From: Henricia sp. BOLD:AAB3569
Lineage: Eukaryota > Echinodermata > Asteroidea > Spinulosida > Echinasteridae
Direction of reading: 5' to 3'
DNA length: 64,000 nucleotides
Assembly (NCBI GenBank): GCA_037783545.1
Contig: JBBELK010000368.1
Location: 1,639,764-1,703,763, forward strand
Below are positions 10,323 through 64,000 of the stretch, piece after piece. How positions within the stretch are numbered: the stretch's first letter is position 1; the number at the start of each line of letters is the position of its first letter. The notes below the pieces were generated by a model. The model was not told the origin of the DNA, did no database searches, and worked only from the letters and a program-made list of their open reading frames with translations. The translations under genes were made by a program, and so were the position numbers.

Positions 10323-13300
10323 GGACCAACGGACATGCGCGATCGGCCTAGTATGATAGTAGACTTAATAACTAGTCTAGCATCAGAGTTGTTGTGTTTG
10401 CAATTTCTGTGGTTATTTTTTACCAGTTCCTAGAAGTAGTTTTGGTCGACTAGTTTGGGTCATCGACCCGCAACACTCGGTGAAAAGTTGGTGTCACGGG
10501 TGTGAAACCTGGCCGTGGTACCTGTGCCCTTGAGCAAGGCACTTAAACACACTTGCTCCATCCTTCGGAAGGGATGTAAAGCCGTTGGTCCAGTGTATTG
10601 TGTAGAGCACACTTTCGTGAAGAGTTAGGGGATTCCGCGGTGTCTCTGGCCGTCGGTTGCCAATGGCACCACCCACCTATGTATCTCGATGTTTAGGTGG
10701 AAGACACTTGTAAGCTTCATGCAATTCAGCCTACGCGCTGCGAATTGAAGTTCATTAAACCCATTAAATAAACATAAATATTAATATTTCTCCACAAGGT
10801 CTTTGGGGATGCATTGTACCAGACAATCCGCAAAGCTAACGGCGAGAACTTCACGGCAGACACCGCCTATGCATGGAAGCTGTTCACACTGGACGTTAAC
10901 TCCAAACTTGTTTCTGGTGTCAATAATCCCAGCAGTCGACCAGGTAAATACAAATCAATTTGATACAAATCGTAAACAGGTCTTTGCCAATCTTATTTTC
11001 TGAGTATGTACTACGACGTCATGGGGAACACAAATTATACTTCATTTTTGAGCCTCGACCAATTTTTTTGGGCACAGAAAAAAATGTGCCTAGCAATAGG
11101 TTACCAACTAAACGTATATGTTTGTATTACGTTGACTGGTACTCTATTTTTTGTTGAGCAGATAAATTTGTCTAATTTGCCTTAATACTAATTTAACATA
11201 TATCCCAAACTCATTTTGGCAGTTTTCAAAATGAAATTCTGAAATTGTTTTCAGGTCCAGGGTTGGCAGTGCCAACAGGTACGGTCCTGTTAAAATGGAA
11301 CAAAAATGTACTTTTATGAAAATGTCTCAGAAATTTTCCTAATTGGAAATTTAGCATTTCCCAAACTCATTTTTGGCAGTTTTCGAAAGAAAATTATAAT
11401 AAAAGAAGAAAAATTCTTAGGTCCCGGGTCGCCAGTGCCAACAGGTCTGGTCCTGTCAAAATTGACCAAACATAGATTTTTCTGAAAATGTCTCAGAAAT
11501 AATCCTTGCCCTACCATCTTGCAATAATTTTACATATGCTATGCCATTTTCAAAAGTTTTGCAAGCTATGGACTTTTTGCATTTCTTTAGTAGATTTAGA
11601 GTAGAATAACATTTTACTCAAAGTTACTTCTAGTCATGATTATCTCAAAACCTGAAACATAAGGTGCAGAGACATTTTGTACAGTCATGTTGGTTTTTTT
11701 GACGAGTTGGCAACACTGCATACGACAAACATAATTTTACATAAAAGCCAAATGCTGACATTATTTTGTCAGAAATGTTCGCTTAGTTTTTAAAATTGAC
11801 CGACATTATTTTTAAACTTGGGATCACTGAGAAAAATTGTAATGGCCTTATCGGGATTCGAACTCGAGACCTCGGACTCACTGAGCAGACGCTATACCAG
11901 CTGAGCTATAAGGCACAGTTGGTATACTCCCTCAGGTTTTCCTTATGGACCCAATTCTTCTCTCGGTGTTGCATGGTAGCGCAACTGGGCAAAGTAATAA
12001 ACGCAACATCTGGTATGGTGCCTGATCACCATTGAAATGAAACAACCAAACTTGGGATGAGAGAAAAATCGTGAGGGCCTTATCGGGATTCGAACCCGAG
12101 AACTCTGAGGGAGTATACCAACTGTGCTTTATAGCTCAGATGGTAGAGTGTCTGCCCGGTGAGTCAGAGGTCTCGGGTTCGAATCCCGATAGGGCCCTTA
12201 TGATTTTTCTCTCATCCTAAGTTTGGTTGTTTCGTAGGTGAAATAGAAAATTCCAGAGCAACTTTTTATGCTTTTTTGCACATTTATGGTAAATTTCAGG
12301 ACCTATTACTACATTGCTGGCTACAGAGAGCAGGCCAGGTATAATGTGTGTGTGCAATGTGATTGGATGACACAGTGATGAATATGCAAATGTTCATGAA
12401 TATGCAAATTTTGTCATGAATATGCAAATACGGCACGAATATGCAAAAGTAGTGCTGTTGCAAGTACAGTGTAGTGTGAATATGCAAATACATGTAGATG
12501 TTTTTGGTTGTTTATAGAATTCATGCTTCATTTGCTAGTTTTAGAAGCATCTGAACAGGGATACTTTCAAATTTGATTTTGAGAATTATACAATATTGGA
12601 TGGCTTTGAGGGTGATATGAGTATTTTCCTCGGTATTTTCATGACGAGTGCGGTATATTCTCATATTACCCGAAAAGACATCCAATATTATTACTTTGTT
12701 TTGAAAGATTTCCGCAAGATTTTTGTCTGTTTGGTGTTGAAAACTTCATTTCTTTTCCAACGTTTACAACTGCATGAACTTTTGTTACTGTTGTACAGTA
12801 TTTTTGTTACTGTACTCACGTGCGCGTTTCATGCACGCGTTTCACGCACATGTGCATTGCACGTACATGCACGTTGCACGCACATGCACAGTGCATTGAC
12901 TTGATCCACGATGCGCAAGTACGCGTGTGCTTTGCTGCGCCCAGCGTGGACGCACATCAGATCGGTGCTCTGTGCTGCACAGTATCGCAAACGCACAGTA
13001 TCCGCAAAAGCTTAATTTTATAAAATATCAATTCTTGATCAGAACAGACGTTTGTTGAATACAGTGAACTTGTGGATAACAAGGCACTGATCGACCAATC
13101 ACTTTGGAATTACTTTCAAGACTGTTTTGCTTCATTGATTTCCTCCAGGTCCAAGAGGACCTGTTTGAACAAAGTGATTCCCACTCCTTCCCCGTAATTT
13201 TTCTCAAAAACTTCATATCCGTGTAGTTGTAGCACAGTTAATATAATGTCATTTTCCCCTATACCTCCACCATGCCCATTACTTCCCATAGAGGATCCTA

Positions 13301-41328: not shown

Positions 41329-42338
41329 ACATTGGTCTTCTGGTTAACCATTTGTCGCCGGAGGACGTGTAAACACGTTCTGGCAATGTATAGTCACAGG
41401 GGCGGTTGACGAGTTCAAATGTCAGCTTTGCCGCTGTCTTCCACGTTCCACCATTCATTTGTACCTACCATGTTTTGAACTTGACGGCTGTGGACGGCCT
41501 GTCAGTGTAGCAAATCTCGCTCCGTGGCGGCCGCCTCGGAGTGTTGCAAAGTATGATATTTTGATGAGAAGATTCATACAATGAATGTAGAAATGACTCA
41601 AGAGTTTGTATTTGTGGCGCTTGACCTGGTCTTAACTTTTCGCCAATCACATAATTCGTCTTTTTTTTTAAAACTGGTATTTTTTTGTAAAAGACTTTTT
41701 AACTTGGTTCCATTCGTGTACGTACACGCAAGCGGAATTTCACTGTAGGGACTGGGAACCTGTCTATTTTACTGAGACTGTTAGAACGTCTTTGGAAACT
41801 TGTATGAACTGCCTGGAAAATTCCGAGCGCATTCCGCGCATACCTTTATATACCATGCATCATGGTCAGTCTTATGATCGTTATTCATGAAGAAATGTAG
41901 TTTTGCGTTTGTGTGTTTCCAGATTGACCTTTGTTTGAATATGCCTATGTAATTTTCAAATCACTGTAGGTAAAAATCCTTGGTCCCACGTGACTCTTAT
42001 CCGAAGACGTTCTAACTGCCGCAGTGCATTGCTGCAAAATGGACTAGTTTCCAGTCTCTACGGTGAACGGAACTAAGTTAGAACGTCTTGCACAAAGACT
42101 ATCAAAAACCTGGCGTAAACTGGTTAAACTTTCAAAATGAGCAATGTTTCCAATAAAATGTTAAACTTGGAAATCCATTAAAAAGTTATAAAAAATGTTG
42201 TTAATACTATTGTACTGAATTTTATCACAGAGTAATTTTGGTATAAATTGTTACGTGCATAAATATTTCAATGTTAATTTAATTGGTAAAACGTGTTTCT
42301 GAAGAAAATGTGTTTTTCTTGTGTTATTCGATATATAC
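41329..42338 (+). other. ADGB: ADGB 3' untranslated region (extent inferred)
   Basis: Sequence after the stop has no coding signal. A canonical AATAAA at 42152-42157 is followed about 45 bases later by T/G-rich sequence, so the simplest 3' end is near 42175. No promoter for another gene was recognised. Confidence 0.5.
42152..42157 (+). terminator. Candidate poly(A) signal, proximal
   Basis: AATAAA 824 bases after the ADGB stop codon, before the first downstream transposon. Confidence 0.5.
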
Positions 42339-42339
42339 A

Positions 42340-42620
42340 GGGTGGTTAAAAAAAAAGAACAAAAATAAACCCAGATATTACATGTATTGCTAATTGTAAC
42401 TAAAGTAGGGCACATATGAATCAAAGGGAGATATCCTCTGTTAGGGTGGAATCTCCTCTTTAAAATGACACCCTAATCATATTGTTTCCGGTTGACTGAG
42501 CAATTATCAATGTTATGCAAGGGTGTAGTTATGGATTTGCGCCACTTTCTCTAATGGCGTCCAGTGGCCTAAACCATGCATGGGATATCTCGGTTTTGTT
42601 ATTTTTTTAACCACCCTATG
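42340..42620. mobile_element. mariner-like MITE (CAGGGTGGTTAAAAAA)
   Basis: TACAGGGTGGTTAAAAAAAA and the inverted TTTTTTTAACCACCCTATG, 280 bp, with TA at both edges as expected for a Tc1/mariner target. Confidence 0.78.
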
Positions 42621-42629
42621 GTATAAGGT

Positions 42630-43002
42630 TCTATGAACATGTCATTTGCAAGATAAAACCTTTTTTACAGATTCGTGGAATAAGAGTAACATATCTAAGG
42701 AAGAATGTTGGTAAACTAGCCTGAAGAAATTTGAGCTATTTAGATGCATCAATGCTTTAGAAAACCTTGAAAATTTATATGGATTCTGTGTACAAGTGAA
42801 TGGTAAAAAAGTCCCGTGCACGGGACTTTTTTGAAAAACCACCTTCGGTTGTCAATTTCCAGCATGAAATACCATTTTGGACGGAAATAAATTCATGTGG
42901 TGTTTGTTACCATTGCTATCAACACTTTGAGTAAGGTTTTTCTTGTCAACTCATGAAAAATAAAATTGGGTCATTGCAAATGATACAATGGGCCTTTAAC
43001 AA
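42630..43002. mobile_element. Repeat F2, uninterrupted copy
   Basis: Reverse of 7080-7321 joined to 7858-7945; ends in CAATGGGCCTTTAA. It contains the unoccupied site (GCTATTTAGATGC at 42735-42747) corresponding to the double MITE insertion at 7322-7858. Confidence 0.82.
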
Positions 43003-43334: not shown

Positions 43335-43549
43335 AAAGAGCCAGTTTACTACAGTTTTGAAGAAAATAATTTTTCTAAAATTTGACAAAACAAATTGACT
43401 TTTAACAAAATCCTCAAAATCTGAAATTTTCTAAAATTCCAGGAATTTCACCCATATAGGTCCTCAGCAACATTTCCTGCAATTTTTAAGAAAATCTTAA
43501 GCATACAATATTTGGCCAAAAATTTAAAAAAAATATAATCCATTCCCTG
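43335..43549. repeat. Decayed edge of the satellite array
   Basis: Shares GCAACATTTCCTGCAAT, TTTGGCCAAAAATTTAAAAA and the order of other words with the monomer but is diverged and rearranged, as expected at an array border. Confidence 0.75.
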
Positions 43550-44173
43550 GATGAGCAGTCAAGGTCAAATTCAAGGAATATCATCTATGGATTCTAAGCA
43601 ACGTTTCCTGCAATATTGAACAAAATCTAAATCTAAACATTTTTGGCCAAAAATGAAAAAAATCACAAGGGGGTTAGTCCAGCCATTTTTATCAAAATTG
43701 GCCCAAAATTGACTTTTTTGAAAATGTCTCAGAAATGCCTCCTAACGAATATTTAGCCCATTTGGCACCTACTTCAGCAGTTTCCAAGTTAAATTTCTAA
43801 GAAAAACGGAAATTTTGGCCAAAAATATATAATTTTCAAAATTTCATATTTTATTCCCTGGATGAGCAGTCAAGGTCAAATTCAAGGAATATCATCTATG
43901 GATTCTAAGCAACGTTTCCTGCAATATTGAACAAAATCTAAATCTAAACATTTTTGGCCAAAAATGAAAAAAATCACAAGGGGTTATTAGTCCAGCCATT
44001 TTTATCAAAATTGGCCCAAAATTGACTTTTTTGAAAATGTCTCAGAAATGCCTCCTAACGAATATTTAGCCCATTTGGCACCTACTTCAGCAGTTTCCAA
44101 GTTAAATTTCTAAGAAAAACGGAAATTTTGGCCAAAAATATATAATTTTCAAAATTTCATATTTTATTCCCTG

Positions 44174-45387
44174 GATGAGCAGTCAAGGTCAAATTCAAGG
44201 AATATCATCTATGGATTCCAAGCAACGTTTCCTGCAATATTGAACAAAATCTAAATCTAAACATTTTTGGCCAAAAATGAAAAAAATCACAGCCATTTTT
44301 ATCAAAATTGGCCCAAAATTGACTTTTTTGAAAATGTCTCAGAAATGCCTCCTAACGAATATTTAGCCCATTTGGCACCTACTTCAGCAGTTTCCAAGTT
44401 AAATTTCTAAGAAAAACGGAAATTTTGGCCAAAAATATATAATTTTCAAAATTTCATATTTTATTCCCTGGATGAGCAGTCAAGGTCAAATTCAAGGAAT
44501 ATCATCTATGGATTCCAAGCAACGTTTCCTGCAATATTGAACAAAATCTAAATCTAAACATTTTTGGCCAAAAATGAAAAAAATCACAAGGGGTTAGTCC
44601 AGCCATTTTTATCAAAATTGGCCCAAAATTGACTTTTTTGAAAATGTCTCAGAAATACCTCCTAACGAATATTTAGCCCATTTGGCACCTACTTCAGCAG
44701 TTTCCAAGTTAAATTTCTAAGAAAAACGGAAATTTTTGCCAAAAATATATAATTTTCAAAATTTCATATTTTATTCCCTGGATGAGCAGTCAAGGTCAAA
44801 TTCAAGGAATATCATCTATGGATTCCAAGCAACGTTTCCTGCAATATTGAACAAAATCTAAATCTAAACATTTTTGGCCAAAAATGAAAAAAATCACAGC
44901 CATTTTTATCAAAATTGGCCCAAAATTGACTTTTTTGAAAATGTCTCAGAAATGCCTCCTAACGAATATTTAGCCCATTTGGCACCTACTTCAGCAGTTT
45001 CCAAGTTAAATTTCTAAGAAAAACGGAAATTTTGGCCAAAAATATATAATTTTCAAAATTTCATATTTTATTCCCTGGATGAGCAGTCAAGGTCAAATTC
45101 AAGGAATATCATCTATGGATTCCAAGCAACGTTTCCTGCAATATTGAACAAAATCTAAATCTAAACATTTTTGGCCAAAAATGAAAAAAATCACAAGGGG
45201 TTAGTCCAGCCATTTTTATCAAAATTGGCCCAAAATTGACTTTTTTGAAAATGTCTCAGAAATACCTCCTAACGAATATTTAGCCCATTTGGCACCTACT
45301 TCAGCAGTTTCCAAGTTAAATTTCTAAGAAAAACGGAAATTTTGGCCAAAAATATATAATTTTCAAAATTTCATATTTTATTCCCTG
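44174..45387. repeat. 607-bp dimeric higher-order repeat, two copies
   Basis: Monomers of 297 bp (lacking the 12 bases around GGGGTTAGTCC) alternate with 310-bp monomers carrying AGAAATACC. Starts 44174, 44781 and 45388 are exactly 607 apart. Confidence 0.9.
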
Positions 45388-48300
45388 GATGAGCAGTCAA
45401 GGTCAAATTCAAGGAATATCATCTATGGATTCCAAGCAACGTTTCCTGCAATATTGAACAAAATCTAAATCTAAACATTTTTTGCCAAAAATGAACAAAA
45501 TCACAAGCCATTTTTATCACAAGCCATTTTTATCAAAATTGGCCCAAAATTGACTTTTTTGAAAATGTCTCAGAAATGCCTCCTAACGAATATTTAGCCC
45601 ATTTGGCACCTACTTCAGCAGTTTCCAAGTTAAATTTCTAAGAAAAACGGAAATTTTGGCCAAAAATATATAATTTTCAAAATTTCATATTTTATTCCCT
45701 GGATGAGCAGTCAAGGTCAAATTCAAGGAATATCATCTATGGATTCCAAGCCACGTTTCCTGCAATATTGAACAAAATCTAAATCTAAACATTTTTGGCC
45801 AAAAATGAAAAAAATCACAAGGGGTTAGTCCAGCCATTTTTATCAAAATTGGCCCAAAATTGACTTTTTTGAAAATGTCTCAGAAATGCCTCCTAACGAA
45901 TATTTAGCCCATTTGGCACCTACTTCAGCAGTTTCCAAGTTAAATTTCTAAGAAAAACGGAAATTTTGGCCAAAAATATATAATTTTCAAAATTTCATAT
46001 TTTATTCCCTGGATGAGCAGTCAAGGTCAAATTCAAGGAATATCATCTATGGATTCTAAGCAACGTTTCCTGCAATATTGAACAAAATCTAAATCTAAAC
46101 ATTTTTGGCCAAAAATGAAAAAAATCACAAGGGGTTAGTCCAGCCATTTTTATCAAAATTGGCCCAAAATTGACTTTTTTGAAAATGTCTCAGAAATGCC
46201 TCCTAACGAATATTTAGCCCATTTGGCACCTACTTCAGCAGTTTCCAAGTTAAATTTCTAAGAAAAACGGAAATTTTGGCCAAAAATATATAATTTTCAA
46301 AATTTCATATTTTATTCCCTGGATGAGCAGTCAAGGTCAAATTCAAGGAATATCATCTATGGATTCTAAGCAACGTTTCCTGCAATATTGAACAAAATCT
46401 AAATCTAAACATTTTTGGCCAAAAATGAAAAAAATCACAAGGGGTTAGTCCAGCCATTTTTATCAAAATTGGCCCAAAATTGACTTTTTTGAAAATGTCT
46501 CAGAAATGCCTCCTAACGAATATTTAGCCCATTTGGCACCTACTTCAGCAGTTTCCAAGTTAAATTTCTAAGAAAAACGGAAATTTTGGCCAAAAATATA
46601 TAATTTTCAAAATTTCATATTTTATTCCCTGGATGAGCAGTCAAGGTCAAATTCAAGGAATATCATCTATGGATTCCAAGCAACGTTTCCTGCAATATTG
46701 AACAAAATCTAAATCTAAACATTTTTGGCCAAAAATGAAAACAATCACAAGGGGTTAGTCCAGCCATTTTTATCAAAATTGGCCCAAAATTGACTTTTTT
46801 GAAAATGTCTCAGAAATGCCTCCTAACGAATATTTAGCCCATTTGGCACCTACTTCAGCAGTTTCCAAGTTAAATTTCTAAGAAAAACGGAAATTTTGGC
46901 CAAAAATATATAATTTTCAAAATTTCATATTTTATTCCCTGGATGAGCAGTCAAGGTCAAATTCAAGGAATATCATCTATGGATTCCAAGCAACGTTTCC
47001 TGCAATATTGAACAAAATCTAAATCTAAACATTTTTGGCCAAAAATGAAAAAAATCACAAGGGGTTAGTCCAGCCATTTTTATCAAAATTGGCCCAAAAT
47101 TGACTTTTTTGAAAATGTCTCAGAAATGCCTCCTAACGAATATTTAGCCCATTTGGCACCTACTTCAGCAGTTTCCAAGTTAAATTTCTAAGAAAAACGG
47201 AAATTTTGGCCAAAAATATATAATTTTCAAAATTTCATATTTTATTCCCTGGATGAGCAGTCAAGGTCAAATTCAAGGAATATCATCTATGGATTCCAAG
47301 CAACGTTTCCTGCAATATTGAACAAAATCTAAATCTAAACATTTTTGGCCAAAAATGAAAAAAATCACAAGGGGTTAGTCCAGCCATTTTTATCAAAATT
47401 GGCCCAAAATTGACTTTTTTGAAAATGTCTGAGAAATGCCTCCTAACGAATATTTAGCCCATTTGGCACCTACTTCAGCAGTTTCCAAGTTAAATTTCTA
47501 AGAAAAACGGAAATTTTGGCCAAAAATATATAATTTTCAAAATTTCATATTTTATTCCCTGGATGAGCAGTCAAGGTCAAATTCAAGGAATATCATCTAT
47601 GGATTCTAAGCAACGTTTCCTGCAATATTGAACAAAATCTAAATCTAAACATTTTTGGCCAAAAATGAAAACAATCACAAGGGGTTAGTCCAGCCATTTT
47701 TATCAAAATTGGCCCAAAATTGACTTTTTTGAAAATGTCTCAGAAATGCCTCCTAACGAATATTTAGCCCATTTGGCACCTACTTCAGCAGTTTCCAAGT
47801 TAAATTTCTAAGAAAAACGGAAATTTTGGCCAAAAATATATAATTTTCAAAATTTCATATTTTATTCCCTGGATGAGCAGTCAAGGTCAAATTCAAGGAA
47901 TATCATCTATGGATTCTAAGCAACGTTTCCTGCAATATTGAACAAAATCTAAATCTAAACATTTTTGGCCAAAAATGAAAAAAATCACAAGGGGTTAGTC
48001 CAGCCATTTTTATCAAAATTGGCCCAAAATTGACTTTTTTGAAAATGTCTGAGAAATGCCTCCTAACGAATATTTAGCCCATTTGGCACCTACTTCAGCA
48101 GTTTCCAAGTTAAATTTCTAAGAAAAACGGAAATTTTGGCCAAAAATATATAATTTTCAAAATTTCATATTTTATTCCCTGGATGAGCAGTCAAGGTCAA
48201 ATTCAAGGAATATCATCTATGGATTCCAAGCAACGTTTCCTGCAATATTGAACAAAATCTAAATCTAAACATTTTTGGCCAAAAATGAAAAAAATCACAA

Positions 48301-49111
48301 GGGGTTAGTCCAGCCATTTTTATCAAAATTGGCCCAAAATTGACTTTTTTGAAAATGTCTCAGAAATGCCTCCTAACGAATATTTAGCCCATTTGGCACC
48401 TACTTCAGCAGTTTCCAAGTTAAATTTCTAAGAAAAACGGAAATTTTGGCCAAAAATATATAATTTTCAAAATTTCATATTTTATTCCCTGGATGAGCAG
48501 TCAAGGTCAAATTCAAGGAATATCATCTATGGATTCCAAGCAACGTTTCCTGCAATATTGAACAAAATCTAAATCTAAACATTTTTGGCCAAAAATGAAA
48601 AAAATCACAAGGGGTTAGTCCAGCCATTTTTATCAAAATTGGCCCAAAATTGACTTTTTTGAAAATGTCTCAGAAATACCTCCTAACGAATATTTAGCCC
48701 ATTTGGCACCTACTTCAGCAGTTTCCAAGTTAAATTTCTAAGAAAAACGGAAATTTTGGCCAAAAATATATAATTTTTAAAATTTCATATTTTATTCCCT
48801 GGATGAGCAGTCAAGGTCAAATTCAAGGAATATCATCTATGGATTCCAAGCAACGTTTCCTGCAATATTGAACAAAATCTAAATCTAAACATTTTTGGCC
48901 AAAAATGAAAACAATCACAAGGGGTTAGTCCAGCCATTTTTATCAAAATTGGCCCAAAATTGACTTTTTTGAAAATGTCTCAGAAATGCCTCCTAACGAA
49001 TATTTAGCCCATTTGGCACCTACTTCAGCAGTTTCCAAGTTAAATTTCTAAGAAAAACGGAAATTTTGGCCAAAAATATATAATTTTCAAAATTTCATAT
49101 TTTATTCCCTG

Positions 49112-52100
49112 GATGAGCAGTCAAGGTCAAATTCAAGGAATATCATCTATGGATTCCAAGCAACGTTTCCTGCAATATTGAACAAAATCTAAATCTAAAC
49201 ATTTTTGGCCAAAAATGAAAAAAAACACAAGGGGTTAGTCCAGCCATTTTTATCAAAATTGGCCCAAAATTGACTTTTTTGAAAATGTCTCAGAAATGCC
49301 TCCTAACGAATATTTAGCCCATTTGGCACCTACTTCAGCAGTTTCCAAGTTAAATTTCTAAGAAAAACGGAAATTTTGGCCAAAAATATATAATTTTCAA
49401 AATTTCATATTTTATTCCCTGGATGAGCAGTCAAGGTCAAATTCAAGGAATATCATCTATGGATTCTAAGCAACGTTTCCTGCAATATTGAACAAAATCT
49501 AAATCTAAACATTTTTGGCCAAAAATGAAAAAAATCACAAGGGGTTAGTCCAGCCATTTTTATCAAAATTGGCCCAAAATTGACTTTTTTGAAAATGTCT
49601 CAGAAATGCCTCCTAACGAATATTTAGCCCATTTGGCACCTACTTCAGCAGTTTCCAAGTTAAATTTCTAAGAAAAACGGAAATTTTGGCCAAAAATATA
49701 TAATTTTCAAAATTTCATATTTTATTCCCTGGATGAGCAGTCAAGGTCAAATTCAAGGAATATCATCTATGGATTCCAAGCAACGTTTCCTGCAATATTG
49801 AACAAAATCTAAATCTAAACATTTTTGGCCAAAAATGAAAAAAATCACAAGGGGTTAGTCCAGCCATTTTTATCAAAATTGGCCCAAAATTGACTTTTTT
49901 GAAAATGTCTCAGAAATACCTCCTAACGAATATTTAGCCCATTTGGCACCTACTTCAGCAGTTTCCAAGTTAAATTTCTAAGAAAAACGGAAATTTTGGC
50001 CAAAAATATATAATTTTCAAAATTTCATATTTTATTCCCTGGATGAGCAGTCAAGGTCAAATTCAAGGAATATCATCTATGGATTCCAAGCAACGTTTCC
50101 TGCAATATTGAACAAAATCTAAATCTAAACATTTTTGGCCAAAAATGAAAAAAATCACAAGGGGTTAGTCCAGCCATTTTTATCAAAATTGGCCCAAAAT
50201 TGACTTTTTTGAAAATGTCTCAGAAATGCCTCCTAACGAATATTTAGCCCATTTGGCACCTACTTCAGCAGTTTCCAAGTTAAATTTCTAAGAAAAACGG
50301 AAATTTTGGCCAAAAATATATAATTTTCAAAATTTCATATTTTATTCCCTGGATGAGCAGTCAAGGTCAAATTCAAGGAATATCATCTATGGATTCTAAG
50401 CAACGTTTCCTGCAATATTGAACAAAATCTAAATCTAAACATTTTTGGCCAAAAATGAAAACAATCACAAGGGGTTAGTCCAGCCATTTTTATCAAAATT
50501 GGCCCAAAATTGACTTTTTTGAAAATGTCTCAGAAATGCCTCCTAACGAATATTTAGCCCATTTGGCACCTACTTCAGCAGTTTCCAAGTTAAATTTCTA
50601 AGAAAAACGGAAATTTTGGCCAAAAATATATAATTTTCAAAATTTCATATTTTATTCCCTGGATGAGCAGTCAAGGTCAAATTCAAGGAATATCATCTAT
50701 GGATTCCAAGCAACGTTTCCTGCAATATTGAACAAAATCTAAATCTAAACATTTTTGGCCAAAAATGAAAAAAAACACAAGGGGTTAGTCCAGCCATTTT
50801 TATCAAAATTGGCCCAAAATTGACTTTTTTGAAAATGTCTCAGAAATGCCTCCTAACGAATATTTAGCCCATTTGGCACCTACTTCAGCAGTTTCCAAGT
50901 TAAATTTCTAAGAAAAACGGAAATTTTGGCCAAAAATATATAATTTTCAAAATTTCATATTTTATTCCCTGGATGAGCAGTCAAGGTCAAATTCAAGGAA
51001 TATCATCTATGGATTCTAAGCAACGTTTCCTGCAATATTGAACAAAATCTAAATCTAAACATTTTTGGCCAAAAATGAAAAAAATCACAAGGGGTTAGTC
51101 CAGCCATTTTTATCAAAATTGGCCCAAAATTGACTTTTTTGAAAATGTCTCAGAAATACCTCCTAACGAATATTTAGCCCATTTGGCACCTACTTCAGCA
51201 GTTTCCAAGTTAAATTTCTAAGAAAAACGGAAATTTTGGCCAAAAATATATAATTTTCAAAATTTCATATTTTATTCCCTGGATGAGCAGTCAAGGTCAA
51301 ATTCAAGGAATATCATCTATGGATTCCAAGCAACGTTTCCTGCAATATTGAACAAAATCTAAATCTAAACATTTTTGGCCAAAAATGAAAAAAATCACAA
51401 GGGGTTAGTCCAGCCATTTTTATCAAAATTGGCCCAAAATTGACTTTTTTGAAAATGTCTCAGAAATGCCTCCTAACGAATATTTAGCCCATTTGGCACC
51501 TACTTCAGCAGTTTCCAAGTTAAATTTCTAAGAAAAACGGAAATTTTGGCCAAAAATATATAATTTTCAAAATTTCATATTTTATTCCCTGGATGAGCAG
51601 TCAAGGTCAAATTCAAGGAATATCATCTATGGATTCCAAGCAACGTTTCCTGCAATATTGAACAAAATCTAAATCTAAACATTTTTGGCCAAAAATGAAA
51701 AAAAACACAAGGGGTTAGTCCAGCCATTTTTATCAAAATTGGCCCAAAATTGACTTTTTTGAAAATGTCTCAGAAATGCCTCCTAACGAATATTTAGCCC
51801 ATTTGGCACCTACTTCAGCAGTTTCCAAGTTAAATTTCTAAGAAAAACGGAAATTTTGGCCAAAAATATATAATTTTCAAAATTTCATATTTTATTCCCT
51901 GGATGAGCAGTCAAGGTCAAATTCAAGGAATATCATCTATGGATTCTAAGCAACGTTTCCTGCAATATTGAACAAAATCTAAATCTAAACATTTTTGGCC
52001 AAAAATGAAAAAAATCACAAGGGGTTAGTCCAGCCATTTTTATCAAAATTGGCCCAAAATTGACTTTTTTGAAAATGTCTCAGAAATGCCTCCTAACGAA

Positions 52101-54071
52101 TATTTAGCCCATTTGGCACCTACTTCAGCAGTTTCCAAGTTAAATTTCTAAGAAAAACGGAAATTTTGGCCAAAAATATATAATTTTCAAAATTTCATAT
52201 TTTATTCCCTGGATGAGCAGTCAAGGTCAAATTCAAGGAATATCATCTATGGATTCCAAGCAACGTTTCCTGCAATATTGAACAAAATCTAAATCTAAAC
52301 ATTTTTGGCCAAAAATGAAAAAAATCACAAGGGGTTAGTCCAGCCATTTTTATCAAAATTGGCCCAAAATTGACTTTTTTGAAAATGTCTCAGAAATACC
52401 TCCTAACGAATATTTAGCCCATTTGGCACCTACTTCAGCAGTTTCCAAGTTAAATTTCTAAGAAAAACGGAAATTTTGGCCAAAAATATATAATTTTCAA
52501 AATTTCATATTTTATTCCCTGGATGAGCAGTCAAGGTCAAATTCAAGGAATATCATCTATGGATTCCAAGCAACGTTTCCTGCAATATTGAACAAAATCT
52601 AAATCTAAACATTTTTGGCCAAAAATGAAAAAAATCACAAGGGGTTAGTCCAGCCATTTTTATCAAAATTGGCCCAAAATTGACTTTTTTGAAAATGTCT
52701 CAGAAATGCCTCCTAACGAATATTTAGCCCATTTGGCACCTACTTCAGCAGTTTCCAAGTTAAATTTCTAAGAAAAACGGAAATTTTGGCCAAAAATATA
52801 TAATTTTCAAAATTTCATATTTTATTCCCTGGATGAGCAGTCAAGGTCAAATTCAAGGAATATCATCTATGGATTCTAAGCAACGTTTCCTGCAATATTG
52901 AACAAAATCTAAATCTAAACATTTTTGGCCAAAAATGAAAACAATCACAAGGGGTTAGTCCAGCCATTTTTATCAAAATTGGCCCAAAATTGACTTTTTT
53001 GAAAATGTCTCAGAAATGCCTCCTAACGAATATTTAGCCCATTTGGCACCTACTTCAGCAGTTTCCAAGTTAAATTTCTAAGAAAAACGGAAATTTTGGC
53101 CAAAAATATATAATTTTCAAAATTTCATATTTTATTCCCTGGATGAGCAGTCAAGGTCAAATTCAAGGAATATCATCTATGGATTCCAAGCAACGTTTCC
53201 TGCAATATTGAACAAAATCTAAATCTAAACATTTTTGGCCAAAAATGAAAAAAAACACAAGGGGTTAGTCCAGCCATTTTTATCAAAATTGGCCCAAAAT
53301 TGACTTTTTTGAAAATGTCTCAGAAATGCCTCCTAACGAATATTTAGCCCATTTGGCACCTACTTCAGCAGTTTCCAAGTTAAATTTCTAAGAAAAACGG
53401 AAATTTTGGCCAAAAATATATAATTTTCAAAATTTCATATTTTATTCCCTGGATGAGCAGTCAAGGTCAAATTCAAGGAATATCATCTATGGATTCTAAG
53501 CAACGTTTCCTGCAATATTGAACAAAATCTAAATCTAAACATTTTTGGCCAAAAATGAAAAAAATCACAAGGGGTTAGTCCAGCCATTTTTATCAAAATT
53601 GGCCCAAAATTGACTTTTTTGAAAATGTCTCAGAAATACCTCCTAACGAATATTTAGCCCATTTGGCACCTACTTCAGCAGTTTCCAAGTTAAATTTCTA
53701 AGAAAAACGGAAATTTTGGCCAAAAATATATAATTTTCAAAATTTCATATTTTATTCCCTGGATGAGCAGTCAAGGTCAAATTCAAGGAATATCATCTAT
53801 GGATTCCAAGCAACGTTTCCTGCAATATTGAACAAAATCTAAATCTAAACATTTTTGGCCAAAAATGAAAAAAATCACAAGGGGTTAGTCCAGCCATTTT
53901 TATCAAAATTGGCCCAAAATTGACTTTTTTGAAAATGTCTCAGAAATGCCTCCTAACGAATATTTAGCCCATTTGGCACCTACTTCAGCAGTTTCCAAGT
54001 TAAATTTCTAAGAAAAACGGAAATTTTGGCCAAAAATATATAATTTTCAAAATTTCATATTTTATTCCCTG
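49112..54071. repeat. 2480-bp octameric higher-order repeat, two copies
   Basis: I typed monomers by three variable sites: TC(T/C)AAG at CTATGGATT, the A-run before CACAAG (AAAATC, ACAATC or AAAAAC), and GAAAT(G/A)CC. The order of eight types from 49112 repeats exactly from 51592. Confidence 0.88.
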
Positions 54072-56551
54072 GATGAGCAGTCAAGGTCAAATTCAAGGAA
54101 TATCATCTATGGATTCCAAGCAACGTTTCCTGCAATATTGAACAAAATCTAAATCTAAACATTTTTGGCCAAAAATGAAAAAAAACACAAGGGGTTAGTC
54201 CAGCCATTTTTATCAAAATTGGCCCAAAATTGACTTTTTTGAAAATGTCTCAGAAATGCCTCCTAACGAATATTTAGCCCATTTGGCACCTACTTCAGCA
54301 GTTTCCAAGTTAAATTTCTAAGAAAAACGGAAATTTTGGCCAAAAATATATAATTTTCAAAATTTCATATTTTATTCCCTGGATGAGCAGTCAAGGTCAA
54401 ATTCAAGGAATATCATCTATGGATTCTAAGCAACGTTTCCTGCAATATTGAACAAAATCTAAATCTAAACATTTTTGGCCAAAAATGAAAAAAATCACAA
54501 GGGGTTAGTCCAGCCATTTTTATCAAAATTGGCCCAAAATTGACTTTTTTGAAAATGTCTCAGAAATACCTCCTAACGAATATTTAGCCCATTTGGCACC
54601 TACTTCAGCAGTTTCCAAGTTAAATTTCTAAGAAAAACGGAAATTTTGGCCAAAAATATATAATTTTCAAAATTTCATATTTTATTCCCTGGATGAGCAG
54701 TCAAGGTCAAATTCAAGGAATATCATCTATGGATTCCAAGCAACGTTTCCTGCAATATTGAACAAAATCTAAATCTAAACATTTTTGGCCAAAAATGAAA
54801 AAAATCACAAGGGGTTAGTCCAGCCATTTTTATCAAAATTGGCCCAAAATTGACTTTTTTGAAAATGTCTCAGAAATGCCTCCTAACGAATATTTAGCCC
54901 ATTTGGCACCTACTTCAGCAGTTTCCAAGTTAAATTTCTAAGAAAAACGGAAATTTTGGCCAAAAATATATAATTTTCAAAATTTCATATTTTATTCCCT
55001 GGATGAGCAGTCAAGGTCAAATTCAAGGAATATCATCTATGGATTCCAAGCAACGTTTCCTGCAATATTGAACAAAATCTAAATCTAAACATTTTTGGCC
55101 AAAAATGAAAAAAAACACAAGGGGTTAGTCCAGCCATTTTTATCAAAATTGGCCCAAAATTGACTTTTTTGAAAATGTCTCAGAAATGCCTCCTAACGAA
55201 TATTTAGCCCATTTGGCACCTACTTCAGCAGTTTCCAAGTTAAATTTCTAAGAAAAACGGAAATTTTGGCCAAAAATATATAATTTTCAAAATTTCATAT
55301 TTTATTCCCTGGATGAGCAGTCAAGGTCAAATTCAAGGAATATCATCTATGGATTCTAAGCAACGTTTCCTGCAATATTGAACAAAATCTAAATCTAAAC
55401 ATTTTTGGCCAAAAATGAAAAAAATCACAAGGGGTTAGTCCAGCCATTTTTATCAAAATTGGCCCAAAATTGACTTTTTTGAAAATGTCTCAGAAATACC
55501 TCCTAACGAATATTTAGCCCATTTGGCACCTACTTCAGCAGTTTCCAAGTTAAATTTCTAAGAAAAACGGAAATTTTGGCCAAAAATATATAATTTTCAA
55601 AATTTCATATTTTATTCCCTGGATGAGCAGTCAAGGTCAAATTCAAGGAATATCATCTATGGATTCCAAGCAACGTTTCCTGCAATATTGAACAAAATCT
55701 AAATCTAAACATTTTTGGCCAAAAATGAAAAAAATCACAAGGGGTTAGTCCAGCCATTTTTATCAAAATTGGCCCAAAATTGACTTTTTTGAAAATGTCT
55801 CAGAAATGCCTCCTAACGAATATTTAGCCCATTTGGCACCTACTTCAGCAGTTTCCAAGTTAAATTTCTAAGAAAAACGGAAATTTTGGCCAAAAATATA
55901 TAATTTTCAAAATTTCATATTTTATTCCCTGGATGAGCAGTCAAGGTCAAATTCAAGGAATATCATCTATGGATTCCAAGCAACGTTTCCTGCAATATTG
56001 AACAAAATCTAAATCTAAACATTTTTGGCCAAAAATGAAAAAAAACACAAGGGGTTAGTCCAGCCATTTTTATCAAAATTGGCCCAAAATTGACTTTTTT
56101 GAAAATGTCTCAGAAATGCCTCCTAACGAATATTTAGCCCATTTGGCACCTACTTCAGCAGTTTCCAAGTTAAATTTCTAAGAAAAACGGAAATTTTGGC
56201 CAAAAATATATAATTTTCAAAATTTCATATTTTATTCCCTGGATGAGCAGTCAAGGTCAAATTCAAGGAATATCATCTATGGATTCTAAGCAACGTTTCC
56301 TGCAATATTGAACAAAATCTAAATCTAAACATTTTTGGCCAAAAATGAAAAAAATCACAAGGGGTTAGTCCAGCCATTTTTATCAAAATTGGCCCAAAAT
56401 TGACTTTTTTGAAAATGTCTCAGAAATACCTCCTAACGAATATTTAGCCCATTTGGCACCTACTTCAGCAGTTTCCAAGTTAAATTTCTAAGAAAAACGG
56501 AAATTTTGGCCAAAAATATATAATTTTCAAAATTTCATATTTTATTCCCTG
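53762..56551. repeat. 930-bp trimeric higher-order repeat, three copies
   Basis: The three-type cycle (standard; AAAAAC variant; TCTAAG plus GAAATACC variant) repeats with starts at 53762, 54692 and 55622. It overlaps the end of the octamer block, which ends in the same trimer, so the trimer probably arose from it. Confidence 0.9.
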
Positions 56552-59500
56552 GATGAGCAGTCAAGGTCAAATTCAAGGAATATCATCTATGGATTCCAAG
56601 CAACGTTTCCTGCAATATTGAACAAAATCTAAATCTAAACATTTTTGGCCAAAAATGAAAAAAATCACAAGGGGTTAGTCCAGCCATTTTTATCAAAATT
56701 GGCCCAAAATTGACTTTTTTGAAAATGTCTCAGAAATGCCTCCTAACGAATATTTAGCCCATTTGGCACCTACTTCAGCAGTTTCCAAGTTAAATTTCTA
56801 AGAAAAACGGAAATTTTGGCCAAAAATATATAATTTTCTAAATTTCATATTTTATTCCCTGGATGAGCAGTCAAGGTCAAATTCAAGGAATATCATCTAT
56901 GGATTCCAAGCAACGTTTCCTGCAATATTGAACAAAATCTAAATCTAAACATTTTTGGCCAAAAATGAAAAAAATCACAAGGGATTTTTATCAAAATTGG
57001 CCCAAAATTGACTTTTTTGAAAATGTCTCAGAAATGCCTCCTAACGAATATTTAGCCCATTTGGCACCTACTTCAGCAGTTTCCAAGTTAAATTTCTAAG
57101 AAAAACGGAAATTTTGGCCAAAAATATATAATTTTCAAAATTTCATATTTTATTCCCTGGATGAGCAGTCAAGGTCAAATTCAAGGAATATCATCTATGG
57201 ATTCCAAGCAACGTTTCCTGCAATATTGAACAAAATCTAAATCTAAACATTTTTGGCCAAAAATGAAAAAAATCACAAGGGGTTAGTCCAGCCATTTTTA
57301 TCAAAATTGGCCCAAAATTGACTTTTTTGAAAATGTCTCAGAAATACCTCCTAACGAATATTTAGCCCATTTGGCACCTACTTCAGCAGTTTCCAAGTTA
57401 AATTTCTAAGAAAAACGGAAATTTTGGCCAAAAATATATAATTTTCAAAATTTCATATTTTATTCCCTGGATGAGCAGTCAAGGTCAAATTCAAGGAATA
57501 TCATCTATGGATTCCAAGCAACGTTTCCTGCAATATTGAACAAAATCTAAATCTAAACATTTTTGGCCAAAAATGAAAAAAATCACAAGGGGTTAGTCCA
57601 GCCATTTTTATCAAAATTGGCCCAAAATTGACTTTTTTGAAAATGTCTCAGAAATGCCTCCTAACGAATATTTAGCCCATTTGGCACCTACTTCAGCAGT
57701 TTCCAAGTTAAATTTCTAAGAAAAACGGAAATTTTGGCCAAAAATATATAATTTTCAAAATTTCATATTTTATTCCCTGGATGAGCAGTCAAGGTCAAAT
57801 TCAAGGAATATCATCTATGGATTCTAAGCAACGTTTCCTGCAATATTGAACAAAATCTAAATCTAAACATTTTTGGCCAAAAATGAAAACAATCACAAGG
57901 GGTTAGTCCAGCCATTTTTATCAAAATTGGCCCAAAATTGACTTTTTTGAAAATGTCTCAGAAATGCCTCCTAACGAATATTTAGCCCATTTGGCACCTA
58001 CTTCAGCAGTTTCCAAGTTAAATTTCTAAGAAAAACGGAAATTTTGGCCAAAAATATATAATTTTCAAAATTTCATATTTTATTCCCTGGATGAGCAGTC
58101 AAGGTCAAATTCAAGGAATATCATCTATGGATTCCAAGCAACGTTTCCTGCAATATTGAACAAAATCTAAATCTAAACATTTTTGGCCAAAAATGAAAAA
58201 AAACACAAGGGGTTAGTCCAGCCATTTTTATCAAAATTGGCCCAAAATTGACTTTTTTGAAAATGTCTCAGAAATGCCTCCTAACGAATATTTAGCCCAT
58301 TTGGCACCTACTTCAGCAGTTTCCAAGTTAAATTTCTAAGAAAAACGGAAATTTTGGCCAAAAATATATAATTTTCAAAATTTCATATTTTATTCCCTGG
58401 ATGAGCAGTCAAGGTCAAATTCAAGGAATATCATCTATGGATTCTAAGCAACGTTTCCTGCAATATTGAACAAAATCTAAATCTAAACATTTTTGGCCAA
58501 AAATGAAAAAAATCACAAGGGGTTAGTCCAGCCATTTTTATCAAAATTGGCCCAAAATTGACTTTTTTGAAAATGTCTCAGAAATACCTCCTAACGAATA
58601 TTTAGCCCATTTGGCACCTACTTCAGCAGTTTCCAAGTTAAATTTCTAAGAAAAACGGAAATTTTGGCCAAAAATATATAATTTTCAAAATTTCATATTT
58701 TATTCCCTGGATGAGCAGTCAAGGTCAAATTCAAGGAATATCATCTATGGATTCCAAGCAACGTTTCCTGCAATATTGAACAAAATCTAAATCTAAACAT
58801 TTTTGGCCAAAAATGAAAAAAATCACAAGGGGTTAGTCCAGCCATTTTTATCAAAATTGGCCCAAAATTGACTTTTTGAAAATGTCTCAGAAATACCTCC
58901 TAACGAATATTTAGCCCATTTGGCACCTACTTCAGCAGTTTCCAAGTTAAATTTCTAAGAAAAACGGAAATTTTGGCCAAAAATATATAATTTTCTAAAT
59001 TTCATATTTTATTCCCTGGATGAGCAGTCAAGGTCAAATTCAAGGAATATCATCTATGGATTCCAAGCAACGTTTCCTGCAATATTGAACAAAATCTAAA
59101 TCTAAACATTTTTGGCCAAAAATGAAAAAAATCACAAGGGGTTAGTCCAGCCATTTTTATCAAAATTGGCCCAAAATTGACTTTTTGAAAATGTCTCAGA
59201 AATGCCTCCTAACGAATATTTAGCCCATTTGGCACCTACTTCAGCAGTTTCCAAGTTAAATTTCTAAGAAAAACGGAAATTTTGGCCAAAAATATATAAT
59301 TTTCAAAATTTCATATTTTATTCCCTGGATGAGCAGTCAAGGTCAAATTCAAGGAATATCATCTATGGATTCCAAGCAACGTTTCCTGCAATATTGAACA
59401 AAATCTAAATCTAAACATTTTTGGCCAAAAATGAAAAAAATCACAAGGGGTTAGTCCAGCCATTTTTATCAAAATTGGCCCAAAATTGACTTTTTTGAAA

Positions 59501-62500
59501 ATGTCTCAGAAATGCCTCCTAACGAATATTTAGCCCATTTGGCACCTACTTCAGCAGTTTCCAAGTTAAATTTCTAAGAAAAACGGAAATTTTGGCCAAA
59601 AATATATAATTTTCAAAATTTCATATTTTATTCCCTGGATGAGCAGTCAAGGTCAAATTCAAGGAATATCATCTATGGATTCTAAGCAACGTTTCCTGCA
59701 ATATTGAACAAAATCTAAATCTAAACATTTTTGGCCAAAAATGAAAAAAATCACAAGGGGTTAGTCCAGCCATTTTTATCAAAATTGGCCCAAAATTGAC
59801 TTTTTTGAAAATGTCTCAGAAATACCTCCTAACGAATATTTAGCCCATTTGGCACCTACTTCAGCAGTTTCCAAGTTAAATTTCTAAGAAAAACGGAAAT
59901 TTTGGCCAAAAATATATAATTTTCAAAATTTCATATTTTATTCCCTGGATGAGCAGTCAAGGTCAAATTCAAGGAATATCATCTATGGATTCCAAGCAAC
60001 GTTTCCTGCAATATTGAACAAAATCTAAATCTAAACATTTTTGGACAAAAATGAAAAAAATCACAAGGGGTTAGTCCAGCCATTTTTATCAAAATTGGCC
60101 CAAAATTGACTTTTTTGAAAATGTCTCAGAAATGCCTCCTAACGAATATTTAGCCCATTTGGCACCTACTTCAGCAGTTTCCAAGTTAAATTTCTAAGAA
60201 AAACGGAAATTTTGGCCAAAAATATATAATTTTCTAAATTTCATATTTTATTCCCTGGATGAGCAGTCAAGGTCAAATTCAAGGAATATCATCTATGGAT
60301 TCCAAGCAACGTTTCCTGCAATATTGAACAAAATCTAAATCTAAACATTTTTGGCCAAAAATGAAAAAAATCACAAGGGGTTAGTCCAGCCATTTTTATC
60401 AAAATTGGCCCAAAATTGACTTTTTTGAAAATGTCTCAGAAATGCCTCCTAACGAATATTTAGCCCATTTGGCACCTACTTCAGCAGTTTCCAAGTTAAA
60501 TTTCTAAGAAAAACGGAAATTTTGGCCAAAAATATATAATTTTCAAAATTTCATATTTTATTCCCTGGATGAGCAGTCAAGGTCAAATTCAAGGAATATC
60601 ATCTATGGATTCTAAGCAACGTTTCCTGCAATATTGAACAAAATCTAAATCTAAACATTTTTGGCCAAAAATGAAAAAAATCACAAGGGGTTAGTCCAGC
60701 CATTTTTATCAAAATTGGCCCAAAATTGACTTTTTTGAAAATGTCTGAGAAATGCCTCCTAACGAATATTTAGCCCATTTGGCACCTACTTCAGCAGTTT
60801 CCAAGTTAAATTTCTAAGAAAAACGGAAATTTTGGCCAAAAATATATAATTTTCAAAATTTCATATTTTATTCCCTGGATGAGCAGTCAAGGTCAAATTC
60901 AAGGAATATCATCTATGGATTCCAAGCAACGTTTCCTGCAATATTGAACAAAATCTAAATCTAAACATTTTTGGCCAAAAATGAAAAAAATCACAAGGGG
61001 TTAGTCCAGCCATTTTTATCAAAATTGGCCCAAAATTGACTTTTTTGAAAATGTCTCAGAAATACCTCCTAACGAATATTTAGCCCATTTGGCACCTACT
61101 TCAGCAGTTTCCAAGTTAAATTTCTAAGAAAAACGGAAATTTTGGCCAAAAATATATAATTTTCAAAATTTCATATTTTATTCCCTGGATGAGCAGTCAA
61201 GGTCAAATTCAAGGAATATCATCTATGGATTCCAAGCAACGTTTCCTGCAATATTGAACAAAATCTAAATCTAAACATTTTTGGCCAAAAATGAAAAAAA
61301 TCACAAGGGGTTAGTCCAGCCATTTTTATCAAAATTGGCCCAAAATTGACTTTTTTGAAAATGTCTCAGAAATGCCTCCTAACGAATATTTAGCCCATTT
61401 GGCACCTACTTCAGCAGTTTCCAAGTTAAATTTCTAAGAAAAACGGAAATTTTGGCCAAAAATATATAATTTTCAAAATTTCATATTTTATTCCCTGGAT
61501 GAGCAGTCAAGGTCAAATTCAAGGAATATCATCTATGGATTCCAAGCAACGTTTCCTGCAATATTGAACAAAATCTAAATCTAAACATTTTTGGCCAAAA
61601 ATGAAAAAAATCACAAGGGGTTAGTCCAGCCATTTTTATCAAAATTGGCCCAAAATTGACTTTTTTGAAAATGTCTCAGAAATGCCTCCTAACGAATATT
61701 TAGCCCATTTGGCACCTACTTCAGCAGTTTCCAAGTTAAATTTCTAAGAAAAACGGAAATTTTGGCCAAAAATATATAATTTTCAAAATTTCATATTTTA
61801 TTCCCTGGATGAGCAGTCAAGGTCAAATTCAAGGAATATCATCTATGGATTCTAAGCAACGTTTCCTGCAATATTGAACAAAATCTAAATCTAAACATTT
61901 TTGGCCAAAAATGAAAAAAATCACAAGGGGTTAGTCCAGCCATTTTTATCAAAATTGGCCCAAAATTGACTTTTTTGAAAATGTCTCAGAAATGCCTCCT
62001 AACGAATATTTAGCCCATTTGGCACCTACTTCAGCAGTTTCCAAGTTAAATTTCTAAGAAAAACGGAAATTTTGGCCAAAAATATATAATTTTCAAAATT
62101 TCATATTTTATTCCCTGGATGAGCAGTCAAGGTCAAATTCAAGGAATATCATCTATGGATTCTAAGCAACGTTTCCTGCAATATTGAACAAAATCTAAAT
62201 CTAAACATTTTTGGCCAAAAATGAAAAAAATCACAAGGGGTTAGTCCAGCCATTTTTATCAAAATTGGCCCAAAATTGACTTTTTTGAAAATGTCTCAGA
62301 AATGCCTCCTAACGAATATTTAGCCCATTTGGCACCTACTTCAGCAGTTTCCAAGTTAAATTTCTAAGAAAAACGGAAATTTTGGCCAAAAATATATAAT
62401 TTTCAAAATTTCATATTTTATTCCCTGGATGAGCAGTCAAGGTCAAATTCAAGGAATATCATCTATGGATTCCAAGCAACGTTTCCTGCAATATTGAACA

Positions 62501-64000
62501 AAATCTAAATCTAAACATTTTTGGCCAAAAATGAAAAAAATCACAAGGGGTTAGTCCAGCCATTTTTATCAAAATTGGCCCAAAATTGACTTTTTTGAAA
62601 ATGTCTCAGAAATGCCTCCTAACGAATATTTAGCCCATTTGGCACCTACTTCAGCAGTTTCCAAGTTAAATTTCTAAGAAAAACGGAAATTTTGGCCAAA
62701 AATATATAATTTTCAAAATTTCATATTTTATTCCCTGGATGAGCAGTCAAGGTCAAATTCAAGGAATATCATCTATGGATTCCAAGCAACGTTTCCTGCA
62801 ATATTGAACAAAATCTAAATCTAAACATTTTTGGCCAAAAATGAAAAAAATCACAAGGGGTTAGTCCAGCCATTTTTATCAAAATTGGCCCAAAATTGAC
62901 TTTTTTGAAAATGTCTCAGAAATGCCTCCTAACGAATATTTAGCCCATTTGGCACCTACTTCAGCAGTTTCCAAGTTAAATTTCTAAGAAAAACGGAAAT
63001 TTTGGCCAAAAATATATAATTTTCAAAATTTCATATTTTATTCCCTGGATGAGCAGTCAAGGTCAAATTCAAGGAATATCATCTATGGATTCCAAGCAAC
63101 GTTTCCTGCAATATTGAACAAAATCTAAATCTAAACATTTTTGGCCAAAAATGAAAAAAAATCACAAGGGGTTAGTCCAGCCATTTTTATCAAAATTGGC
63201 CCAAAATTGACTTTTTTGAAAATGTCTCAGAAATGCCTCCTAACGAATATTTAGCCCATTTGGCACCTACTTCAGCAGTTTCCAAGTTAAATTTCTAAGA
63301 AAAACGGAAATTTTGGCCAAAAATATATAATTTTCAAAATTTCATATTTTATTCCCTGGATGAGCAGTCAAGGTCAAATTCAAGGAATATCATCTATGGA
63401 TTCCAAGCAACGTTTCCTGCAATATTGAACAAAATCTAAATCTAAACATTTTTGGCCAAAAATGAAAAAAATCACAAGGGGTTAGTCCAGCCATTTTTAT
63501 CAAAATTGGCCCAAAATTGACTTTTTTGAAAATGTCTCAGAAATGCCTCCTAACGAATATTTAGCCCATTTGGCACCTACTTCAGCAGTTTCCAAGTTAA
63601 ATTTCTAAGAAAAACGGAAATTTTGGCCAAAAATATATAATTTTCAAAATTTCATATTTTATTCCCTGGATGAGCAGTCAAGGTCAAATTCAAGGAATAT
63701 CATCTATGGATTCCAAGCAACGTTTCCTGCAATATTGAACAAAATCTAAATCTAAACATTTTTGGCCAAAAATGAAAACAATCACAAGGGGTTAGTCCAG
63801 CCATTTTTATCAAAATTGGCCCAAAATTGACTTTTTTGAAAATGTCTCAGAAATGCCTCCTAACGAATATTTAGCCCATTTGGCACCTACTTCAGCAGTT
63901 TCCAAGTTAAATTTCTAAGAAAAACGGAAATTTTGGCCAAAAATATATAATTTTCAAAATTTCATATTTTATTCCCTGGATGAGCAGTCAAGGTCAAATT

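What the first reader, a model, noticed from the sequence alone, without database searches (positions are those of the whole stretch)
43550..64000. Higher-order satellite of at least 20 kb directly after androglobin
66 almost identical 310-bp monomers with nested higher-order periods (607, 930 and 2480 bp) indicate recent amplification of blocks, as in centromeric satellites. Here the array begins only about 2 kb after a protein-coding stop codon, which is unusual for centromere DNA and suggests either a pericentromeric gene or an interstitial array.
Basis: partly seen in the sequence, partly recalled or inferred. Interest (0 to 1): 0.7.

Follow-up and report, generated by a model that had tools for sequence, protein, structure and literature searches.

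The report
Gene-side array of a dispersed satellite
Just past the end of an animal's androglobin gene begins a long run of nearly identical 310-letter repeats, a kind found at many other places in this genome, where fresh copies often sit beside worn-out older ones; it is ordinary satellite DNA with an unusually readable history.

Summary
From 43,542 to the window end lie 66 full units of about 310 bp (22 variants, 0.56% mean divergence), 2.2 kb after the androglobin stop codon. The "higher-order" periods are local block duplications (exact 3,175 bp at offset 2,480; exact 2,966 bp at offset 930), not an array-wide HOR of the centromeric kind. The window end is also the end of its 1.70-Mb contig, so 20.5 kb is a minimum. 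A 28-base piece of the unit occurs 8,532 times in the 740.7-Mb assembly (about 2.6 Mb if each marks one unit). Two arrays lie 1.1 Mb apart on one contig, and one complete 12.5-kb array lies inside another; this favours a dispersed, interstitial satellite over a centromere. In five arrays read, 5 of 6 visible edges carry old copies (75-84% identical) in the same orientation beside the young core; an older relic also lies in the gene's last intron. Cores are alike between loci (1.35-2.7% different), old edges mostly are not. Best reading: a young variant spread recently, often to sites of an older family, then was amplified and homogenised within each array. New member of a known kind; no function shown.

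The parts
43542..64000 (+). Core satellite array, 66 full units of about 310 bp plus 30 bp, open at the contig end
43542..46003 (+). Edge units 1-8: hold five of the array's nine non-310 units (297, 297, 311, 313, 314 bp); mean 6.0 alignment columns off consensus against 1.2 in units 9-66
44166..45379 (+).
48913..54567 (+).
52943..56838 (+).
43357..43531 (+). Degenerate old copy abutting the core: 43434-43531 is 76.5% identical to positions 26-121 of the unit; 43357-43411 matches old copies at other loci (75-79%), and the consensus only insignificantly (E 0.5)
40433..40826 (+). Old relic, about 1.3 tandem units (73-77% to consensus over the main stretch), filling 394 of the 683 bp of the presumed last androglobin intron (40418-41100, splice sites read by eye)
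11174..11506 (+). Diverged tandem pair of a different, roughly 160-bp unit in an upstream part of the gene, shown to share with the 310-bp unit only a box of about 45-65 bp (80-87%)
41101..41328 (+). Presumed last androglobin exon ending in the stop codon (acceptor read by eye; no Pfam match of its own)
6822..7049 (+). Part of an ORF with Pfam Androglobin_II

Best explanation
This is one array of a dispersed, non-coding satellite family with two age layers. An older layer, about 20-25% diverged, was already present at several places, including the last intron and 3' flank of androglobin. A single younger 310-bp variant then spread to many loci, often at sites already holding old copies, and was amplified there; the one complete array is 12.5 kb, the longest ones read exceed 20 kb and are cut by contig ends. 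Each array afterwards grew by duplication of blocks of several units (eight and three units here) and was homogenised within itself by unequal exchange or conversion. Shown, in five arrays: the two layers, cores shared between loci, array-specific consensus bases in three arrays, block duplications, low divergence inside arrays (except C308). Inferred: that spreading used homology with old copies (non-allelic recombination, possibly from excised circles), that unequal exchange did the homogenising, and that the array has no function for the gene.
For: Copies: 8,532 sites of a 28-base stretch with up to 3 mismatches (4,174 +, 4,358 -; reversed-pattern control 0 and 0) in 740.7 Mb. Five arrays were compared (221 units); mean identity to the window consensus is 97.4-99.4%. 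Old copies adjoin the core in the same orientation at 5 of 6 visible edges (C368 left, C607 left, C308 right, C705 left and right; not C397 right) at 75-84%. The C705 array (core 202141-214691) is complete and bracketed by old copies on both sides; its 3' boundary unit is a hybrid, 94-100% identical over positions 1-124, 77-87% after position 155. The nearest relative of a unit lies in its own array for 98-100% in four arrays and 78% in C308; C607 and C397 each have a consensus base, unlike that of the other four, in 100% of their units, and C705 one in 97%; one unit sequence of 128 is shared between arrays. Block duplications. Edge units more irregular than interior ones. Longest stop-free run 56 codons.
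Against: C397's visible edge is sharp, without an old copy. C308 is not more alike within itself (2.63%) than to other arrays (2.08-2.69%). Junctions are mostly out of register: only the C705 3' boundary unit is a clear in-register hybrid; C368, C607 and C705 5' jump within the unit. Only five arrays were read: the window's and the four contigs scored (4 of 115 candidates), so not a random sample. Further places (C5, C9, C11, C15, C23) are known only from listed positions; their edges could not be fetched. How common old relics are in random sequence was seen only in a small sample. Identical units shared between arrays may be undercounted, since some units, above all in C308, were cut one to a few bases short by the BLAST limits.
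Confidence: 0.72

Rival explanations
1. Centromeric or pericentromeric satellite: the contig ends in a centromere and androglobin is a pericentromeric gene.
For: The array runs into a contig end, as do three of the four other arrays read; units are homogeneous with block structure.
Against: Two groups of units on one contig 1.1 Mb apart and a complete internal 12.5-kb array; a gene on the left whose last intron holds an old copy; no CENP-B-box-like site with up to 2 mismatches in the consensus. A holocentric or partly centromeric use of the same family is not excluded.
Confidence: 0.12
2. The arrays are the tandem core of a mobile element (Helitron/Helentron type, as in oysters) and were carried by transposition.
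For: Many places with one recent common variant; such a pattern is reported in the oyster Crassostrea gigas (abstracts of PMC7492417 and PMC8268682 seen).
Against: Six edges with 1.8-3 kb of flank each share no element end: matches between loci are the satellite itself and a few short dispersed repeats away from the border. Old edges differ by 14-31% between loci in matched pieces over 100 bp, with one 98-bp exception at 7% (C368 and C607), while cores differ by 1.35-2.7%.
Confidence: 0.12
3. Assembly artefact: a misjoin at about 43,300, or a false expansion of a short array.
For: The contig ends in the array, where assembly is least sure; units 50 and 51 lack one T in a run at one place and unit 64 has an extra A, as polishing errors would give.
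Against: Old copies of the family lie on the gene side at 43357-43531 and 40433-40826; 22 unit variants in ordered blocks; a similar array is complete inside C705.
Confidence: 0.04

Closest known systems
TCAST satellite families of the beetle Tribolium castaneum (PMC5844308; abstract, start of the introduction and section 13 read)
   Same: One family both clustered and dispersed as single or few copies in euchromatin, associated with genes and enriched in introns.
   Different: There the dispersed copies are mostly single units; here arrays of 12 kb and more lie inside contigs or beside a gene. No sequence comparison was made.
Helitron/Helentron-borne satellites of the oyster Crassostrea gigas (PMC8268682, PMC7492417; abstracts and section lists read)
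   Same: Many scattered arrays over the genome.
   Different: No shared mobile-element ends found at six array edges.
Alpha-satellite higher-order repeats with old monomeric flanks (recalled, no paper read)
   Same: Young homogeneous core, older diverged copies at the edge.
   Different: Here units within a block are about 99% alike, so there is no fixed higher-order unit; no CENP-B box in the consensus.

Membership tests
Satellite DNA | Long head-to-tail array of near-identical units | tested here: met
Satellite DNA | High copy number in the genome | tested here: met
   8,532 sites of a 28-base piece with up to 3 mismatches, reversed control 0
Satellite DNA | Non-coding | tested here: met
   Longest stop-free run 56 codons in six frames of the window's array
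Centromeric higher-order-repeat satellite | Fixed multi-unit repeat whose units differ strongly from one another (definition recalled) | tested here: not met
   Units in a block differ by about 0-3 bases; blocks are local
Centromeric higher-order-repeat satellite | CENP-B box (pattern recalled) | tested here: not met
   None in the consensus with up to 2 mismatches; not all animals have one (recalled)
Centromeric higher-order-repeat satellite | One main location per chromosome | tested here: inconclusive
   Two groups on contig C11, one array inside C705; chromosomes unknown
Centromeric higher-order-repeat satellite | CENP-A occupancy | not testable with these tools
   needs ChIP or CUT&RUN
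Helitron/Helentron central repeats | Common element ends at the borders of arrays | tested here: not met
   six edges of five arrays compared; only C705 could be read on both sides
Dispersed (euchromatic) satellite | Several arrays away from one another, with short relatives near or in genes | tested here: met
Dispersed (euchromatic) satellite | Lies in euchromatin | not testable with these tools
   needs chromatin data or FISH

The most novel reading that the evidence does not exclude
Renewal in place: a young satellite variant uses the worn-out copies of its own family as landing sites, so that arrays reappear at the same loci by homologous recombination, cycle after cycle. The androglobin locus, with old relics in the last intron and 3' flank and a fresh array behind the gene, would be one such re-ignited site, and C607 might be the far end of the same array (their old edges are 92.9% alike over 98 bp).
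Probability: 0.35. Interest if true: 0.55.

Novelty: new member of a known kind. Interest (0 to 1): 0.33.

Why it matters
It is a clean case in which two age layers of one satellite can be read at several loci, so the question whether satellites spread to random places or to sites of their own relics can be counted directly. For users of this genome it explains why this contig and at least three others stop where they do, and warns that the androglobin 3' flank may vary between individuals.

Tried and rejected
Hairpin-driven instability: a stem was predicted at about 98-171 of the unit, but the folding energy of a 261-base stretch is no better than shuffles (z -0.46); dropped. The clustering of indels (6 of 7 event types start within 22 columns, p about 5e-5, events listed by hand) and an 18-bp palindrome at 97-114 (0.6% of shuffles as long) stand without an explanation.

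The roughly 160-bp unit at 11174-11506 as a short form of the 310-bp unit: outside the shared box its four tested modules do not beat shuffles (p 0.2-1.0); only the box is claimed.

Two half-units of 155 bp: no clear direct self-similarity at that lag (0.329 against mean 0.282, sd 0.032); the 155-bp harmonic of AA/TT is weak (p 0.03) and the 10-bp band not significant (p 0.07).

Search for the unit in other collections: 0 matches in genome contigs (two patterns) and in viral contigs (two patterns). Literature: six 20-base strings of the unit in 5.39 million papers, 0 papers; satellite DNA with androglobin, 0 papers; 310-bp satellite, nothing relevant in 2 listed; amphioxus satellites, nothing relevant in 6 listed. 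Searches were broader searches, of which I saw listings. The species was not identified.

Genes beside other arrays: ORFs 6-10 kb from the C607 array look like armadillo-repeat exons (ARMC2 from recall), but Pfam gave only matches below cut-off (10 ORFs from three flanks scanned), and one ORF against PDB gave nothing convincing.

Not obtained: edges of the arrays on C5, C11, C15, C23 and of the single listed copy on C9, and genome-wide searches with the old relics (requests not answered).
Full report
What is there. The window carries the downstream part of an androglobin gene on the + strand: Pfam finds Androglobin_II in the ORF at 6759-7106 and Androglobin_V at 24428-24721 and 29968-30168 (and below cut-off at 34586-34942), among 10 ORFs scanned. 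The frame taken as the last exon ends with a stop codon at 41326-41328; it has no Pfam match of its own. From 43,542 to 64,000 the sequence is one head-to-tail array, period 310 bp: 66 full units plus 30 bp, 22 distinct sequences, 57 of 66 exactly 310 bp long, mean pairwise substitution divergence 0.56%. GC drops to 32%. The array has no long open frame (longest stop-free run 56 codons); the consensus has 3 CpG against 7.9 expected and no CENP-B-box-like site.

The nested periods. Writing each unit type as a letter, the longest repeated block is nine units at a distance of eight; 0 of 2,000 shuffles reached it. In base terms there is an exact repeat of 3,175 bp at offset 2,480 and one of 2,966 bp at offset 930. 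Array-wide, identity of unit types at lag 3 was reached by 9 of 5,000 shuffles and at lag 8 by 188, but at lags 4, 7 and 11 by 1,104, 1,602 and 1,316, so the higher-order signal is modest outside the blocks. The 607-bp period is only the alternation of 297- and 310-bp units at the left edge. Units inside a block differ by at most about three bases, so these are traces of recent block duplication, not a fixed higher-order unit.

Old relatives in and beside the gene. The presumed last intron (40418-41100 by its splice sites, read by eye) holds an old tandem relic at 40433-40826, 73-77% identical to the consensus over its main stretch. Another touches the array: 43434-43531 at 76.5%, extended to 43357 by matches to old copies at other loci. 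At 11174-11506 a tandem pair of a different unit of about 160 bp shares a box of about 45-65 bp with the satellite; the rest does not beat shuffles. The best score of 60 shuffled consensus sequences was 37 bits, against 194, 74, 56 and 49 for the four places. All lie in the orientation of the array. They make a misjoin at the gene-array border unlikely, and suggest that this family has long been at this locus.

The genome. The window is C368:1639764-1703763 of a 740.7-Mb assembly in 2,104 contigs, and C368 ends at 1703763: the array runs into the contig end. A 28-base stretch of the unit, with up to 3 mismatches, occurs 8,532 times (4,174 and 4,358 on the two strands; reversed control 0), about 2.6 Mb or 0.36% of the assembly if each stands for one unit. 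Only 100 of the 8,532 places were listed, all exact matches: C5 (18, near the contig start), C9 (1), C11 (75, in two groups at 540-559 kb and 1,704-1,714 kb), C15 (3, at 319 kb and 677 kb), C23 (3). Contig C11 thus holds two groups 1.1 Mb apart. Single or few listed copies also occur (C9, C15, C23), whose surroundings I could not read.

Five arrays compared. Besides the window I read C607 (890433 to the contig end), C397 (contig start to 23081, with 286 bp at 21788-22073 where no full unit matched), C308 (contig start to 7727) and C705 (202141-214691, complete and internal); the far ends of C397 and C705 come from probes and follow-up stretches. These four contigs were the ones scored (4 of 115 candidates), not a random sample. 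Four of the five arrays run into a contig end. In 221 units (66, 17, 73, 25, 40), mean divergence within arrays is 0.56, 0.53, 1.34, 2.63 and 1.30% (C368, C607, C397, C308, C705) and between arrays 1.35-2.69%. C607 and C397 each have a consensus base, unlike that of the other four arrays, in 100% of their units, and C705 one in 97%; whether these bases occur as a minority elsewhere was not tabulated. One unit sequence of 128 is shared by two arrays, perhaps an undercount because some units were trimmed by BLAST limits. C308 is the exception: it is no more alike within than to others, and only 78% of its nearest relatives are its own.

Young core, old rim. Of six visible edges, five carry copies only 75-84% identical, in the same orientation, beside the core; C397 does not. 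On C705 both sides do, and the 3' boundary unit is a hybrid: 94-100% identical over positions 1-124, 77-87% after position 155. Other junctions jump within the unit. For comparison, the 43.3 kb of the window before the array hold two old places; none were found in 10 kb of C308 (L014), the first 9.7 kb of L009 or the first 5.3 kb of L015, or in 15 of 16 probes of 400 bases (the sixteenth lies in the C705 array). This is a small control. Old edges of different loci differ by 14-31% in matched pieces over 100 bp, far more than cores do, so the arrays were probably not carried with their edges. One pair stands out: the old edge of C368 and that of C607 are 92.9% identical over 98 bp, which would fit two ends of one array; orientation allows it, but C607 has a base in all its 17 units that none of C368's 66 units has, so I leave it open.

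How it most likely arose. Shown: a shared young variant at several loci, older copies at most of the edges read, homogeneity inside four of five arrays, and block duplications. Inferred: the young variant reached old sites through homology, was amplified there, and is kept uniform by exchange within each array. No function for androglobin is shown or needed.

Known or new. Satellites scattered in euchromatin, with relatives in introns, are known from Tribolium (PMC5844308: abstract, start of the introduction and section 13 read) and other animals (PMC10048060: passages read); oyster satellites are scattered largely with Helitron-type elements (PMC8268682, PMC7492417: abstracts read), for which I find no ends here. 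This is a new member of a known kind. Its own sequence was not found in print: six 20-base strings were searched in the open-access library, which lacks most subscription papers.

Noticed in passing
window about 42338-42617: Short element with imperfect inverted ends around AGGGTGGTTAAAAAAA in the 3' flank of androglobin, looking like a Tc1/mariner-type MITE (by eye; exact termini and target duplication not settled).
   Followed up: partly
window 42805-42832 and 42686-42940: A 28-bp perfect palindrome, inside a stretch that is 72.5% identical to one about 2 kb outside the C308 array, in opposite orientation.
   Followed up: no
positions about 115-136 of the 310-bp unit, e.g. window 43656-43677: Indel hot spot: 6 of 7 indel event types start within 22 columns, just after an 18-bp palindrome.
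   Followed up: partly
window 11843-11915 (-), 12125-12197 (+), 20803-20873 (-): Three tRNA-like Rfam matches in the gene, possibly tRNA-derived SINEs.
   Followed up: no
window about 16050-16545, 33076-33520, 35037-35521: A dispersed repeat of about 450 bp present three times (seen as similar ORF translations).
   Followed up: no
L009 140-406, 2615-3010, 3764-4213 (C607:880-884 kb): ORFs resembling armadillo-repeat exons (ARMC2 from recall) 6-10 kb from the C607 array; Pfam only below cut-off.
   Followed up: partly
C11:539910-540290 of the own genome: The first listed unit of the C11 array is on the opposite strand to the next ones, suggesting an inversion at the array edge.
   Followed up: no
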